This document shows positions 58,695 to 64,000 of a stretch of DNA of 64,000 nucleotides, one piece after another. The notes beneath the pieces were generated by a model. That model saw nothing but the letters and a program-made list of their open reading frames with translations. It did no database searches and was not told where the DNA came from. Made by a program: the position numbers and the translations under genes. The DNA lies in contig NZ_QVQH01000003.1 in NCBI RefSeq assembly GCF_003428645.1, positions 62,001 to 126,000 on the forward strand, written 5' to 3'. Origin of the DNA: Geodermatophilus marinus (GTDB taxonomy: Bacteria; Actinomycetota; Actinomycetes; Mycobacteriales; Geodermatophilaceae). Numbering within the stretch: the stretch's first letter is position 1; each line of letters starts with the position of its first letter.

Positions 58695-59855
58695 TCAGCC
58701 GGCGGCGTATCCCCACTCCTCGAAGTTCCGCCGCCAGGCGCGTCCGACATCGCGGCGCAGGGACGACGACAGCTCCGGGTAGGTGTTCTTCCGATAGCCG
58801 ACGATGGAGTCGACGTAGCGCTGCAGGGGGGGCTGCACCGCGCCGAAGCCGGGTATGCCGAGGGTGTCGTAGATCCGCTCCACCTGCCCTACCGGGTCCT
58901 TCTCGAGTTCCTCGAAGCACACCTCGTGGTACCTGCCCTCGGGGATCAGCGAACGCTCCTCGAAGAACGCGTCGTACATGATCCTGAAACGCTCGATGAC
59001 CACATCGCGGATGCGGCGCACGTCGAAGTGCTGGAGGCCCATCGTGCGGAGGCTCACCTGGTTCTGCCGCTGCGTGGACTGGAAGACCACGTAGGGATCG
59101 CGGTGGATGTGCACGAAGCGCGCGTCGGGGAACGTGTCGAGGAGCAGCCTGATGCGGCCGGTGTGAGGCGGTGACTTGAGCAGGAGCGGGCGACCGTGCT
59201 TCCACGTCAGCTTCCGGTAGAAGAGCGTCAGTGCCTCCGTCCACTCGGCGACTTCTCGCTCGGGAACCCCTCGAAACGTCAGGTACCGGTGGTACTGCGC
59301 GGCGTCCCGCGGGAACACCCAGGTCAGGAACGGTGAACGCAGCGTGCCGCAGGTCGCGAACTCGTCCTCGAAGGGGACGTCGGCACCGAGGGGTACCTCA
59401 TCCATGATGCGGGTCCTCGGAGAGGCGAACAGGAGCCTGGAATACCGTTCGGTGGTCAGGAACGTATGGGGGTTGAGCACCTGGTAGACGTTCGGGTAGG
59501 CGAACTGCGTGTCGGTGGCCAGCAGGTTGTGCAAGTGTGTCGTCCCGCTGCGCCAGTGCCCGAGGATGAAGAGCGGGGGATGGATCCGGACGTCGGCCAG
59601 CTCGGGCCCGTAGACCCTCGTCTCGTGCCCAGCGACGACCGAGTTCAGGACGCCCGCGCCGGCCATGAACGCCGCGCGTGGCCAGTACGCCGGAGCGACC
59701 GCGAAGCGGTGCTTCCGCAGCAGGCGCACGTACTCGCCGAGCGTCATGCCGTACAGGCTGGTGAAGAACCAGCTGGCCAGGAAGACCCGCAGGGCCTCGA
59801 CCGGACCCGACCGGCCGCCACCGGAAGCCACCGTCACGTCGGTCCTCCGCATCAT
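58695..59855 (-). CDS. PAPS-dependent sulfotransferase family protein
   Basis: 386 residues. The 5'-phosphosulfate loop is FILGHWRSGTTHLHNLLA (GHWRSGTTH at 99-107), and RFVHIHRDPYVVFQST is the 3'-phosphate-binding segment. The N-terminal 75 residues (hydrophobic LASWFFTSLYGMTLGEYVRLL and PRAAFMAGAGVLNSVV) suggest membrane association, as in lipid or glycolipid sulfotransferases. It would move sulfate from PAPS to a hydroxyl, possibly on the product of this cluster (inference). It is the last gene of the minus-strand operon, seven bases after the PPTase stop. G+C appears lower than in the core genes. Confidence 0.88.
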   Translation of the reverse strand: MMRRTDVTVASGGGRSGPVEALRVFLASWFFTSLYGMTLGEYVRLLRKHRFAVAPAYWPRAAFMAGAGVLNSVVAGHETRVYGPELADVRIHPPLFILGHWRSGTTHLHNLLATDTQFAYPNVYQVLNPHTFLTTERYSRLLFASPRTRIMDEVPLGADVPFEDEFATCGTLRSPFLTWVFPRDAAQYHRYLTFRGVPEREVAEWTEALTLFYRKLTWKHGRPLLLKSPPHTGRIRLLLDTFPDARFVHIHRDPYVVFQSTQRQNQVSLRTMGLQHFDVRRIRDVVIERFRIMYDAFFEERSLIPEGRYHEVCFEELEKDPVGQVERIYDTLGIPGFGAVQPPLQRYVDSIVGYRKNTYPELSSSLRRDVGRAWRRNFEEWGYAAG

Positions 59856-59862
59856 CCGTGGG

Positions 59863-60618
59863 TCAGAGCCACTCCGGCCACTGCACGCAGGTCACCGGCA
59901 GTGCCTGGTCCCCCTCGTTGGCGAGTGCAGCCACGTAGCCGGGCACCGGCGCCAGGTCCTGGAGCCACCAGCGGGAGGAGTGCCGTGGATCGCCGTCGAC
60001 GGTCGGCCTGCGCGCCGGTTCGTACGGTGGCAGCGAGACGTCGACGCGGTCCGGCGATCGCGACAGGCCTGCTCCGCAGGCCTTCAGGAAGGCCTCCTTG
60101 CGGGTCCAGCCGCGGAAGAAGGCTGCCTGCCGCTGCTCGGGAGCGAGGGTCTGGAAGGCCGCGTGCTCGCGGGGCGAGAGGACCCGCCCGGCCAGGGACG
60201 TCACGCTCGCGAGGTCGCGGATCCGTTCGACGTCGATGCCGATCCGCCGGCCGCACGTGACGGCACAGAGGACCAGCCCGAGCGAGTGCGACACGCTGAA
60301 CTCCACGTCGCCGGCCTGTGACGCCGACAGCGCCGGCTTCCCGGTCCCGCCGGAGTGCACCTGCAGGTGGTGAGGGGGGATCGTCAGGTACGACGCCAGG
60401 ATCATGCGGACGACACCGCGTCCGACGACGAACCACCTGCGATCTCGCTCGAAGCAGAACTGCGCCGCTCGGCGGCGTTCCGAATCCGACAGGACGCGCA
60501 GCGAGCGCTCGAGGTGGCGTGCGGGCGGATCCAGCGACGCGCGCCAGACGTGTACCGCGCCCCGAGGGAGCCGGGGACGTGGAGAGGGGAAGTCCCACGC
60601 GGCCTCACGCGGTGCCAT
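59863..60618 (-). CDS. Sfp-type 4'-phosphopantetheinyl transferase
   Basis: 251 residues. The three Sfp motifs are FSVSHSLGLVLCAV, RIGIDVERIRDL (G127-E131, Mg-binding Asp129/Glu131) and FFRGWTRKEAFLKACGAGL (W171-K179). The pseudo-dimeric length matches Sfp/HetI, not AcpS. It transfers phosphopantetheine from CoA to carrier-protein serines and most likely activates the ACP of the PKS at 63.3-64.0 kb. Its start lies 14 bp inside the glycosyltransferase gene, so the two are tightly coupled. Confidence 0.93.
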   Translation of the reverse strand: MAPREAAWDFPSPRPRLPRGAVHVWRASLDPPARHLERSLRVLSDSERRRAAQFCFERDRRWFVVGRGVVRMILASYLTIPPHHLQVHSGGTGKPALSASQAGDVEFSVSHSLGLVLCAVTCGRRIGIDVERIRDLASVTSLAGRVLSPREHAAFQTLAPEQRQAAFFRGWTRKEAFLKACGAGLSRSPDRVDVSLPPYEPARRPTVDGDPRHSSRWWLQDLAPVPGYVAALANEGDQALPVTCVQWPEWL

Positions 60619-61813
60619 GACCGACCGCTCGGGGCTCGACGACGCTGGCCGTTCCGTCCGGGTGGACGCGGAACCGCCGGCCCCGCCACACGATCTCGTC
60701 CGTGACCAGGCTGTGCAGGAACAACGGGAACCGCAGCAGCTCCTGGACCAGGACGACCCAGAGGAAGCGTACGAGCTTCTCGTTGCGTGCCAGGCCCGTG
60801 TTGACGGCCACCGCCGAGACCGACGGCACGGCGAGGGCCACGAGGACCGAGGTCAGGGCGACCGGGACGTCACTGCCCCGGAACAGGGTGACGGCCAGGA
60901 GCAGGAGGCTCCACAGGAGGACGAGGTCCACCAGGTGCATCAGCAGGTAGTGGACCGGCCAGTAGTGGCGGATGATCACCAGCCAGCGGTGCCGGTGCGA
61001 CCACCAGCCCGGGAAGCTGTCGTGAGGGTGGATGACCAGTGCCGGCTGCCTGAGCAGGTGGATCCGGTACCCGCGACGCCGGATCACCCGGGCGAGCTGG
61101 ATGTCGTCGGCGATGTGCCATCCGAGTCGCTCGATCCCGCCGACCTCCCGCAGAACCGATCGTCGGGTGACCATCGTGGTCCCGATGGCGCCGTCGAAGA
61201 GCCCGAAGCGGTGCAACGTCGCGATCCGGAGCACGAGCTCGTTGACCGACGTGCTGGTGAGCGCTGCCGGCCAGTCCTCGGAGCCGGTGTACGCCGGCGG
61301 ACCGAAGGCGATGCCGAGCGAGGGATCGCCCATGCACGCCACGGTGTCGCGGAGGAACGTGGGCGGGACACGGGCGTCGGAGTCGCTGAAGACGATCACG
61401 TCGTAGGAGCTGGCTGCGACCCCGGCCGTCATGTTCTTGAGCTTGCCGAAGGACCGTGAGTCCGCGGAGTCGCTGAAGACCAGCCTGATCCGCTCGTCCG
61501 GGTGCTCCTCCATGAGCCGGCGGATGACGGGGACGACCGGATCGGACACCTCCTCGACGCAGAACAGGAGCTCGTACGCGGCGCCGTACTCCTGCCGGCA
61601 GAAGCTGGCGAAGTTCTCGTAGGCCGACTGGTCGACACCCTTGGTGGGCTTCACGACCGAGACCTCGGGCTCGTGCGTCGTCCGCCGTGGCGACGGGTCA
61701 CGGCCGGCGAGATAGGTCCACGTGCAGAGGTGCATGACGAGGGTCCACAGCACGGAACTGCCGATGATGGCGAGCAACGTGCCGTAGAGCACGTCCACGA
61801 CGAGCACCCGCAC
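60605..61813 (-). CDS. Membrane glycosyltransferase, ceramide-glucosyltransferase-like (GT2/GT21)
   Basis: 402 residues. An N-terminal membrane segment (TLLAIIGSSVLWTLVMHLCTWTYLAG), then EVSVVKPTKGVDQSAYENFASFCRQEY, the UDP-sugar D1 site VIVFSDSDARV (D144/D146), D3 in WHIADDIQLARVIRRRGYR (D236/D237) and HRHRW (273-277) replacing the usual (Q/R)xxRW. Two or more C-terminal helices follow. This order matches ceramide glucosyltransferase and HpnI-type enzymes, which glycosylate lipids on the cytoplasmic membrane face. The acceptor is probably the long alcohol or acyl chain made by this cluster (inference). Confidence 0.9.
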   Translation of the reverse strand: MRVLVVDVLYGTLLAIIGSSVLWTLVMHLCTWTYLAGRDPSPRRTTHEPEVSVVKPTKGVDQSAYENFASFCRQEYGAAYELLFCVEEVSDPVVPVIRRLMEEHPDERIRLVFSDSADSRSFGKLKNMTAGVAASSYDVIVFSDSDARVPPTFLRDTVACMGDPSLGIAFGPPAYTGSEDWPAALTSTSVNELVLRIATLHRFGLFDGAIGTTMVTRRSVLREVGGIERLGWHIADDIQLARVIRRRGYRIHLLRQPALVIHPHDSFPGWWSHRHRWLVIIRHYWPVHYLLMHLVDLVLLWSLLLLAVTLFRGSDVPVALTSVLVALAVPSVSAVAVNTGLARNEKLVRFLWVVLVQELLRFPLFLHSLVTDEIVWRGRRFRVHPDGTASVVEPRAVGHGTA

Positions 61814-61837
61814 AGGAGCCTCCGACCGAGCTCGGGA

Positions 61838-63286
61838 TCAATCCGGCCGGTCGACGAGCGGTCGTCGACCGACGTGCGCCGGGGGGTGGAGGAAGCCGGT
61901 GCGGACGAAGTACGACAGGTAGCGTGCGAGCACGTCCCCGTCGACCTGGGGACAGGTGATCGTGGTGCCGGCGAGCCCGTCCCGTGCGTGCCGGTCGTCG
62001 AACGTCACCGACCGCGCTGCGTACTGGGCCGCCATGACGCGTCCGACCCGGTCCACCGTGCCCCGGACCTCCGGTCTCACCCGGTCCAGCCCTCGCGGAC
62101 GGTCGTCCGGGGTCGCCGAGAAGAGCGGCAGGAGGTGGGACGCCCCGACTGCCTTGGCACGCCCCGCAGGGCTCAGCAGCGTGGTCCGCCACCGGTCGTA
62201 GGGGAGCAGCCGGACCGGGAAACCGGACGAACGGATCCACCGGGCGAGCTCCCGGAGGTGCACCGGCCGGGAGTTGACGAGGTGGAACACGCCCCCGAGC
62301 GCCTGGTCGGACAGCGACAGGTGGACCATCGCCCGGCTGACGTAGTCGACCGGCGTCATGTCGATCGCCCCGTCCAGGTCCGGAGCTGTGCCCAGCTCGA
62401 CCCAGCTGGTGAGCAGCCGGGGCAGGAAGTCGTCGGTGTTCCACGCGCCGGTCCGGCTGTGCCCGGTGATGATGCCCGGTCGGTACACGGCCACGGGGAG
62501 GCCCCGGGAGCGGGCGACGGCCACCAGCTTCTCCGCGACCCACTTGCTCTGCGTGTACCCCCCGAAGAGGACCCCGCCGTGGTCGAGGCTGTCCTGCTCC
62601 CGGACGACCGTGCCTCCGGGATCGTCCGCCAGGGGGAAGACGGCGAGGGAGGAGACGACGTGCACCGGCTTGACCCGGCCGGAACAGGCCAGGCGCAGCA
62701 CCTCCTGCGTCCCCGCCACGTTCGCGGGCTTCAGCCGGGTGTAGGACGAGATCCAGTTGACCGCCGCACCGTTGTGGTAGATCGCGTCGACGCGCGACGA
62801 GAGGGCATCGAACCGCTCCGGTGTCAGGCCGAGCAGCGGCCTCGACAGATCGCCGACGACGGGGACGACGCGCGATCGGCGATCCCCCCGATCGGGCACG
62901 TAGGACGCGAGGTTCTGCTCGATCCTCCGTCGCGCCTCCTCGGGGGTCGCGGCCCGGACCAGGCAGTGGATGACCGCGTCCGTCCGCTCGAGCAGTTCGT
63001 GCAGCAGGAAGGCTCCCAGGAAGCCCGTCGCACCGGTCAGGAACACGTGACCCCGGCCGGCCGGCCGGGCGACGGGCGGACCGCCCGGTCGGATGGCCGG
63101 ATCGAGGTCCACCTCAGCGCTCAGGTCCGACACCGGAGCCGCGAACTGGTCGAGAGCGCTCCGGTGCGGCACGTCCGCGGGCGAAGGCGTCGTGCCCCCC
63201 CGGGCCCTCCGCGCGAGCAGTCTCACGAGCAGCGCCCGCTTCTCCGCCGAGGACAGGGACGACAGGTCCGGAGGCGTCCGGCTCAC
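61838..63286 (-). CDS. Stand-alone thioester reductase (NAD-binding_4)
   Basis: 482 residues. The N-terminus SSLSSAEKRALLVRLLAR is a docking-type helix like those after condensation or ACP modules. The reductase domain has VFLTGATGFLGAFLLHELL (GATGFLG 85-91), a VSSLAVF active-site region (S212/S213) and GGYTQSKWVAEKLV (Y244, K248). This extended SDR family reductively releases acyl chains from carrier proteins as aldehydes or alcohols, as in HglB/HetM and Lys2. Its GTG overlaps the PKS stop by four bases, so it probably docks on that PKS. Confidence 0.93.
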   Translation of the reverse strand: MSRTPPDLSSLSSAEKRALLVRLLARRARGGTTPSPADVPHRSALDQFAAPVSDLSAEVDLDPAIRPGGPPVARPAGRGHVFLTGATGFLGAFLLHELLERTDAVIHCLVRAATPEEARRRIEQNLASYVPDRGDRRSRVVPVVGDLSRPLLGLTPERFDALSSRVDAIYHNGAAVNWISSYTRLKPANVAGTQEVLRLACSGRVKPVHVVSSLAVFPLADDPGGTVVREQDSLDHGGVLFGGYTQSKWVAEKLVAVARSRGLPVAVYRPGIITGHSRTGAWNTDDFLPRLLTSWVELGTAPDLDGAIDMTPVDYVSRAMVHLSLSDQALGGVFHLVNSRPVHLRELARWIRSSGFPVRLLPYDRWRTTLLSPAGRAKAVGASHLLPLFSATPDDRPRGLDRVRPEVRGTVDRVGRVMAAQYAARSVTFDDRHARDGLAGTTITCPQVDGDVLARYLSYFVRTGFLHPPAHVGRRPLVDRPD

Positions 63287-64000
63287 GGGTTCGCCTCCTC
63301 GCTGACCTCCCCGGCCACCATCTCCTGCAGCAGGGCCGACACCTCCTCGTCGGAGAGCTGCGACACGTCGTCCACCACCTGCGCCGGGTCGTCCTGGTCG
63401 CTCGGCGCCGTCACCGGGGCCGCCGCGTCTCCGCTCAACTGCTCGATCACCAAGGCCGACAGGCCGGCGATGCTGAGACCCTCCATGAACTTCATGGTCG
63501 GCACCTCCACCCCCACCATGGCCTGGATCTGGTTGCCGATCTCCACGGCCATGAGGGAGTCGAGCCCCAGGTTGAGCAACGACTGCTCCACGTCGAGCTT
63601 CTCCGGTGACATGCCGAGCACCCGTGCCAGCTGGTCCCGGATGTGCATCGACAGCAACGGTTGCCGCTCGGCCGGGTCCGCGGCCAGGACCGCATCGATC
63701 AGCGACGCAGCGGTCCCTTCCCCGTCGTCCCCCGGCGTGGTCTCCACCAGATGGGCGAAGCGCGGCGTCACCCGGATCAGGTGCACCTTCGCCAGCCGGG
63801 GCCAGTCGATGTGCCCCACGCCGACCTGCACGGCGTCGTGGCGGAGGAGTTCTCCCAGGATCCCCAGGAGCTGGTGGGCGGGCAGGGATCTCACGCCGAC
63901 GTGGTCGAGCTTCTGACCGATCTCCGGGTTCTCGGCGACGTACCCGACCTCGGAGACCGCACCCCAGTTCACGGTGAGCGCCGGCAGCCGCTGGAGCCTG
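63283..64000 (-). CDS. Type I polyketide synthase, C-terminal part (KR end plus ACP; 5' part beyond window)
   Basis: About 238 residues are visible, entering from the right edge. LQRLPALTVNWGAVSEVGYVAENPEIGQKL is the usual end of a PKS ketoreductase domain, followed by LLGILGELLRHDAVQVGVGHIDWPRL. The acyl carrier protein has NLGLDSLMAVEIGNQI with the phosphopantetheine Ser at 63556-63558. A C-terminal tail (QVVDDVSQLSDEEVSALLQEM) looks like a docking helix. There is no thioesterase, so chain release probably falls to the adjacent thioester reductase. KS, AT and other domains must lie beyond the window. Confidence 0.93.
   Translation of the reverse strand, partial: RLQRLPALTVNWGAVSEVGYVAENPEIGQKLDHVGVRSLPAHQLLGILGELLRHDAVQVGVGHIDWPRLAKVHLIRVTPRFAHLVETTPGDDGEGTAASLIDAVLAADPAERQPLLSMHIRDQLARVLGMSPEKLDVEQSLLNLGLDSLMAVEIGNQIQAMVGVEVPTMKFMEGLSIAGLSALVIEQLSGDAAAPVTAPSDQDDPAQVVDDVSQLSDEEVSALLQEMVAGEVSEEANP

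What the first reader, a model, noticed from the sequence alone, without database searches (positions are those of the whole stretch)
58695..64000. Candidate glycolipid pathway: PKS, thioester reductase, lipid glycosyltransferase, PPTase and sulfotransferase in one operon
Five minus-strand genes are coupled or nearly so: GTGA overlap, 24-bp gap, 14-bp overlap, 7-bp gap. Known functions of the families give a coherent route: chain assembly on a PKS without thioesterase, reductive release by a stand-alone thioester reductase, glycosylation by a ceramide-glucosyltransferase-like enzyme, and PPTase for ACP activation. These are the functions of cyanobacterial heterocyst-glycolipid synthesis (HglE PKS, HglB reductase, HglT, HetI). 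Related envelope glycolipids are known in Frankia vesicles. The sulfotransferase is not part of the cyanobacterial set I know and points to a sulfated variant. The product and role (for example desiccation or radiation protection of the envelope) are inference.
Basis: partly seen in the sequence, partly recalled or inferred. Interest (0 to 1): 0.82.

Follow-up and report, generated by a model that had tools for sequence, protein, structure and literature searches.

The report
Operon for a sulfated, branched glycolipid
A Geodermatophilus soil bacterium carries an island of genes that is predicted to build a methyl-branched fatty alcohol, attach a sugar and a sulfate to it and likely export it; the same finishing enzymes occur in distant bacteria beside a chain-building enzyme of another lineage, which suggests a so far undescribed family of sulfated envelope lipids.

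Summary
The five coupled minus-strand genes are real, with exactly the junctions reported. The own genome shows what the window cuts off: one complete PKS module without thioesterase (KS-AT-DH-C-methyltransferase-ER-KR-ACP, 2587 aa) and an ABC pair. The block is an island between Thr aldolase and DNase IV, seen in 2 of 26 Geodermatophilus genomes; in 20 of 21 other sites fetched the flanks are neighbours (one not assessable). PKS-TR-GT-ST recurs in that order in a Rubrobacteraceae MAG (with an MMPL exporter) and a Chloroflexota genome (five tandem sulfotransferases, an MFS). The thioester reductases group together, but the PKSs do not: Geodermatophilus has a cyanobacteria-like PKS with a C-methyltransferase, the other two a different lineage without it but with a methylmalonyl-type (YASH) AT motif. 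Two chemistries thus seem to give one kind of methyl-branched chain. Best reading: release as an alcohol, glycosylation, sulfation, export. It resembles heterocyst-glycolipid synthesis in logic but fails the features of that family that could be tested; the closest published architecture I found is the sponge-symbiont swf cluster. No product has been seen. It is unlikely to be the genus-typical unidentified glycolipid, since most Geodermatophilus genomes lack the block.

The parts
58695..59855 (-). ST: sulfotransferase, 386 aa, STF-like
59863..60618 (-). PPTase, 251 aa, HetI-like
   Evidence: ACPS 1.2e-18; HetI model 186.4 bits, under its cut-off of 370
60605..61813 (-). GT: ceramide-glucosyltransferase/HpnI-like glycosyltransferase, 402 aa
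   Evidence: Glyco_transf_21 1.9e-31; profile match to solved ceramide glucosyltransferase 2.3e-39; DSD, DD and HRW motifs kept
61838..63286 (-). TR: stand-alone thioester reductase, 482 aa
   Evidence: TIGR01746 349.9 bits over cut-off; MxaA 4.1e-101; GATGFLG and YxxxK kept
63283..64000 (-). C-terminal part (end of KR, ACP) of the single-module PKS; the gene goes on to window-equivalent 71046 (2587 aa)
   Evidence: Further upstream, outside the window: ABC permease C23:133572-135971 and ATPase C23:135971-136807

Best explanation
The operon is predicted to make and export a sulfated glycolipid: a single-module PKS that likely acts iteratively would build a saturated, methyl-branched acyl chain (malonyl units plus SAM-derived methyls), the thioester reductase would release it as a primary alcohol, the ceramide-glucosyltransferase-like enzyme would add a sugar, the sulfotransferase would add sulfate from PAPS, and the ABC pair would likely carry it out. 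Shown: gene order, domain content, kept catalytic motifs, island position, recurrence of PKS-TR-GT-ST in three lineages, and separate descent of the PKSs. Supported but not starred in the trees: common descent of the TRs and of the GTs. Inferred: iteration, chain length, extender units, 4-electron reduction, sugar identity, position of the sulfate, envelope location. In Chloroflexota five tandem sulfotransferases point to a polysulfated product (inferred).
For: One complete reducing module with MT and no TE. Relatives: PKS to mycocerosic acid synthase, TR to MxaA (recalled as a 4-electron, alcohol-forming reductase), GT to ceramide glucosyltransferase, ST to STF9/STF1. Same core order in Rubrobacteraceae and Chloroflexota. 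The Rubrobacter and Chloroflexota PKSs lack MT but have YASH/GQSxGE ATs, so methyl branching seems kept by other means. An exporter in or beside each cluster: ABC, MMPL, MFS; the ABC permease is found in the same 2 of 26 genus genomes as the cluster. APS kinase, needed for PAPS, in the own genome. TR clade of all three (94/96).
Against: No product is known. YASH/HAFH rules are recalled and VPYH is not a textbook motif. TR and GT clades fall short of the star (94/96, 83/77), and the 32-row GT clade also holds L015, whose flanks lack the other cluster genes. The ST tree has no outgroup from outside such clusters. The ABC pair is separated by 525 bp and its cargo is unknown. APS kinase is in 26 of 26 genus genomes, so it does not track the cluster. 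The five Chloroflexota STs may be redundant or act elsewhere.
Confidence: 0.55

Rival explanations
1. A heterocyst-glycolipid (hgl) type pathway, homologous to the cyanobacterial one, with a sulfotransferase added.
For: Same set of functions: PKS, stand-alone TR, lipid GT, HetI-like PPTase and an ABC exporter. PKS relatives are often cyanobacterial.
Against: One-ORF complete module with MT instead of the split hgl PKS (PMC11804610 passages). HetI model under cut-off. Sulfotransferase conserved in all three clusters, not an add-on.
Confidence: 0.08
2. The PKS product is released as an alcohol and sulfated directly to an alkyl sulfate, as proposed for swf, while the GT acts on another lipid or on a second hydroxyl.
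For: PMC3908369 suggests a primary sulfate for PKS + R-ST without a GT. GT and ST could compete for the same hydroxyl.
Against: GT lies between TR and ST in all three clusters with short gaps or overlaps.
Confidence: 0.16
3. Sulfonation serves as a leaving group for decarboxylative alkene formation, as in CurM/Ols.
For: 4gox and 4gbm (Ols and CurM sulfotransferases) are among the solved relatives.
Confidence: 0.04
4. A diffusible short polyketide (signal, antibiotic or siderophore-like) rather than an envelope lipid.
For: Patchy, island-like distribution (2 of 196 relatives; empty sites) and exporters of three different kinds fit a secondary metabolite.
Against: GT of lipid-modifying type; the Rubrobacter MMPL is nearest a lipid exporter model, though below its cut-off. 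Chain length is simply unknown.
Confidence: 0.13

Closest known systems
swf cluster of sponge symbionts (SwfA PKS, SwfB R+ST; PMC3908369, parts 1-3 of 5 read)
   Same: Single reducing PKS module, thioester reductase and sulfotransferase together; product unknown there too
   Different: R and ST are fused, no GT or PPTase in the described operon, radical SAM in some; SwfA marks DPQ(I/V)R, HATGT and QCALVEL are absent here
hgl islands of cyanobacteria (PMC11804610, passages)
   Same: PKS chain, thioester reductase, glycosyltransferase, PPTase, ABC transporter; glycosylated long-chain alcohol
   Different: PKS split over several genes; no sulfotransferase among the genes named in the passages seen; here one ORF with MT
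Mycocerosic acid synthase / Pks2 and sulfolipid-1
   Same: Nearest solved PKS; reducing, makes methyl-branched chains (recalled); sulfated glycolipid as end product (recalled)
   Different: Under the NF041183 cut-off (1454 of 2400 bits); reductive release and GT on an alcohol instead of acyl transfer to trehalose
Cyanobacterial and Deinococcus single-module PKSs with C-methyltransferase (P0150, P0156, P0164, L074, L075)
   Same: Same domain order and KS-AT clade; P0164 is fused to a thioester reductase
   Different: No cluster of this make-up seen around the Deinococcus ones; the neighbourhoods of the cyanobacterial proteins were not seen
MxaA reductase, ceramide glucosyltransferase, STF9/STF1
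   Same: Nearest solved relatives of TR, GT and ST
   Different: Substrates here unknown

Membership tests
hgl island (heterocyst glycolipid) | PKS domains spread over several genes (HglEA, F, G, D, CA, B) | tested here: not met
   One 2587-aa ORF with all domains; description from PMC11804610 passages
hgl island (heterocyst glycolipid) | HetI-type PPTase | tested here: not met
   NF042922 186.4 bits, cut-off 370
hgl island (heterocyst glycolipid) | hglE-type KS | not testable with these tools
   No antiSMASH and no HglEA sequence on hand
hgl island (heterocyst glycolipid) | HglT-type glycosyltransferase | not tested
   No HglT sequence on hand
swf cluster | KS marks DPQ(I/V)R and HATGT, AT mark QCALVEL | tested here: not met
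   DPQQR and HGTGT; no QCALVEL
swf cluster | Thioester reductase fused to sulfotransferase | tested here: not met
   Separate genes with GT and PPTase between
swf cluster | Single complete reducing PKS module | tested here: met
   with an extra MT
Mas/Pks2 phthioceranic acid synthase (NF041183) | Score over the curated cut-off | tested here: not met
   1454.3 of 2400 bits
Stand-alone thioester reductase (TIGR01746) | Score over cut-off; GATGFLG and YxxxK | tested here: met
   349.9 of 213.35 bits; motifs
HpnI hopanoid glycosyltransferase (TIGR03472) | Score over cut-off | tested here: not met
   217.7 of 310 bits
CurM/Ols decarboxylative chain termination | ST and thioesterase in the PKS polypeptide | tested here: not met
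   No TE or ST match in the PKS
PAPS-dependent sulfotransferase | Sulfotransferase fold and PAPS-binding motifs | tested here: met

The most novel reading that the evidence does not exclude
A so far undescribed, horizontally spread family of (poly)sulfated methyl-branched alkyl glycolipids, built by a conserved finishing cassette (thioester reductase, glycosyltransferase, one to five sulfotransferases) that has been paired at least twice with separate lineages of polyketide synthase. Selection kept the methyl-branched chain while its chemistry was replaced: SAM C-methylation in Geodermatophilus, methylmalonyl extension in Rubrobacter and Chloroflexota.
Probability: 0.4. Interest if true: 0.78.

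Novelty: new variant of a known kind. Interest (0 to 1): 0.62.

Why it matters
Sulfated glycolipids made on PKSs are known mainly from mycobacteria (recalled). A compact route in soil actinobacteria, with a finishing cassette also found in another class and another phylum, would name the genes for an unseen envelope lipid. It would also give a natural case of synthase replacement with retention of product shape, directly testable by isotope labelling. Tandem sulfotransferases in Chloroflexota would give a genetic handle on polysulfated lipids. Many metagenome proteins resemble the GT and ST closely, so the lipid may be more widespread than the sampled genomes suggest.

Tried and rejected
hgl, swf and Mas/Pks2 membership, HpnI identity and CurM-type alkene formation were tested and set aside (Membership tests). 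That this operon makes the typical unidentified Geodermatophilus glycolipid is unlikely: that lipid is described for most species of the genus (PMC5742155, passages), the cluster is in 2 of 26 genomes. Island edges: no shared direct or inverted 11-mer between the two edge stretches compared; integrases were not searched for. Thermoleophilia: 0 of 385 genomes, which the tool calls uninformative without a positive control. Distant GT relatives L015-L018 (38-41%): no TR, ST or PKS of this type in the flanks held (for some the flank on one side is under 2 kb), so the GT family is wider than the cluster. A reading that identity alone shows PKS replacement was dropped: KS-AT identities (50-53%) are no lower than those of TR and GT; only the trees show it. 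Structure was predicted for ST only and searched in pdb and pdb_via only. Plasmid STs outside such clusters reach 39% at best (18 records).

Searches (AP_endonuc_2, 4.6e-46; 23 of 26 genomes) repeat it in the right frame; the ten sites missing were then fetched and all 21 compared.

Full report
Observation. The five minus-strand genes at 58695-64000 exist with exactly the stated junctions and the stated families. The window is C23:62001-126000 of a 5.23-Mb genome.

What the window cuts off. The PKS runs to window-equivalent 71046: 2587 aa, KS-AT-DH-MT-ER-KR-ACP, each once, no thioesterase match. The motifs of KS, AT, DH, MT, ER, KR and ACP that I inspected are kept (the meaning of the motifs is recalled). 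After 525 bp follow a FtsX/MacB-like permease (799 aa) and an ABC ATPase (278 aa) that overlap by one base. The flanks are phosphofructokinase, class II DAHP synthase and a beta-eliminating lyase (read as Thr aldolase) on one side, and an AP_endonuc_2 protein (read as DNase IV) and a PASTA kinase on the other.

Island. Among 196 relatives from 51 genera only this genome and G003 have the GT at E 1e-30. A third Geodermatophilus, SYSU D01176, has an 89% ST (P0246). DNase IV was found in 23 of 26 genus genomes. In 20 of the 21 that lack the GT, Thr aldolase and DNase IV are neighbours, 83 to 2526 bp apart, with no match to any cluster gene; the remaining site ends at a contig edge and cannot be judged. 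G003 has the whole block, ABC pair included, at the same site. The permease occurs in the same 2 of 26 genomes (E 1e-20), so it belongs to the island. GC of the cluster genes is 66.8-72.5% against 75.3% for the window, but the flanking DAHP synthase is also at 71.6%, so GC alone is weak evidence.

Relatives. A scan of genome contigs with the GT alignment (25 loci) and tblastn of the cluster proteins against them found the operon in G. africanus and a related one in a Rubrobacteraceae MAG: PKS-TR-GT-ST-MMPL-PPTase, mostly with overlaps of 4-8 bp. That MAG is the single match among 39 genomes of its class. In a Chloroflexota sample 1 of 400 genomes matched at E 1e-80; its contig length equals that of P0121, Chloroflexia bacterium SDU3-3. 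It holds PKS-TR-GT, five tandem Sulfotransfer_3 genes (45-55% identical to each other), an MFS_3 transporter and a group-1 glycosyltransferase. In an Actinomycetota sample 2 of 396 matched: this genome and the Rubrobacteraceae one. Identities to the Geodermatophilus proteins (Rubrobacter / Chloroflexota): KS-AT 52.5/50.0, TR 49.7/46.5, GT 52.3/47.9, ST 62.3/55.2 at best. Metagenome GT and ST listings share 20 exact contig lengths, where jittered lengths share 1.8 on average and at most 7 in 2000 trials: a proxy for linkage, not proof.

Two synthase lineages. In the KS-AT tree of 52 PKSs the Geodermatophilus PKS sits inside a clade of 41 MT-bearing PKSs (100/99) with cyanobacterial and Deinococcus members, and the Rubrobacter PKS lies outside. 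With the Chloroflexota PKS added, Rubrobacter and Chloroflexota pair (100/99), and a clade joining them with the Geodermatophilus-type PKSs is rejected (p-AU 7e-7; the group was named after the first tree was seen). By contrast the TRs of all three are one clade (94/96, just short of the star), and joining the Geodermatophilus TRs with the TR of cyanobacterial P0164 is rejected (p 0.00036; 15 rows, reference TRs picked by similarity). The GTs lie in one 32-row clade (83/77) that also holds L015, a locus without the other genes. The ST tree has no outgroup from outside such clusters; in it the five Chloroflexota STs branch outside the Geodermatophilus plus Rubrobacter set (96/98). Common descent of the STs rests on 46-62% identity against at most 39% for plasmid STs elsewhere.

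The methyl question. The Rubrobacter and Chloroflexota PKSs lack the methyltransferase but carry GQS(L/M)GE and YASH in the AT, the textbook methylmalonyl marks (recalled). Geodermatophilus has the methyltransferase with GHSVGE and VPYH. In the set none of 43 MT-bearing PKSs shows YASH and 38 of 43 show (V/I)PYH; of the 9 without MT only Rubrobacter shows YASH (three gave no motif with the loose pattern used; the two Deinococcus PKSs count as MT-bearing though their MT match is weak and their SAM motif differs). So both lineages seem able to make methyl branches by different means. This is the strongest hint about the product, and it is an inference from motifs.

Literature. Seen: passages of PMC11804610 (hgl islands), parts 1-3 of 5 of PMC3908369 (swf), passages of PMC4245539, PMC5742155 and PMC9686282; other papers only as search listings. 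The swf cluster is the closest published architecture I found; its expression in E. coli gave no product. No paper of the held library has all of thioester reductase, sulfotransferase, glycosyltransferase, polyketide and gene cluster; related searches listed nothing of this make-up other than swf. The library lacks most subscription journals, and spelling (sulphotransferase) limits such searches.

Verdict. The product remains unseen.

Noticed in passing
L084:13330-19092 (Chloroflexota genome G894): Five tandem sulfotransferase paralogues (45-55% identical) directly after PKS-TR-GT; suggests a polysulfated variant.
   Followed up: partly
L074:16874-36989 (Deinococcus sp. QL22 plasmid) and L075:9886-29382 (Deinococcus sp. 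KNUC1210 plasmid): PPTase, single-module PKS of the same clade, thioester reductase, class III aminotransferase, GNAT, radical SAM, KAS III and ACP: looks like a long-chain amine or amide pathway (function inferred).
   Followed up: no
L077:6517-24198 (Planktothrix agardhii plasmid p3): Fatty acyl-AMP ligase, single PKS without MT, two GT39 proteins and another glycosyltransferase: possibly another PKS glycolipid cluster.
   Followed up: no
P0164 (Iphinoe sp. HA4291-MV1): The same type of MT-bearing PKS fused to a thioester reductase in one protein of 2985 aa.
   Followed up: partly
L043:7945-8967 (G. africanus): A TauE/SafE-family gene lies between Thr aldolase and the cluster; not found in L009 nor in any of the 21 sites.
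   Followed up: partly
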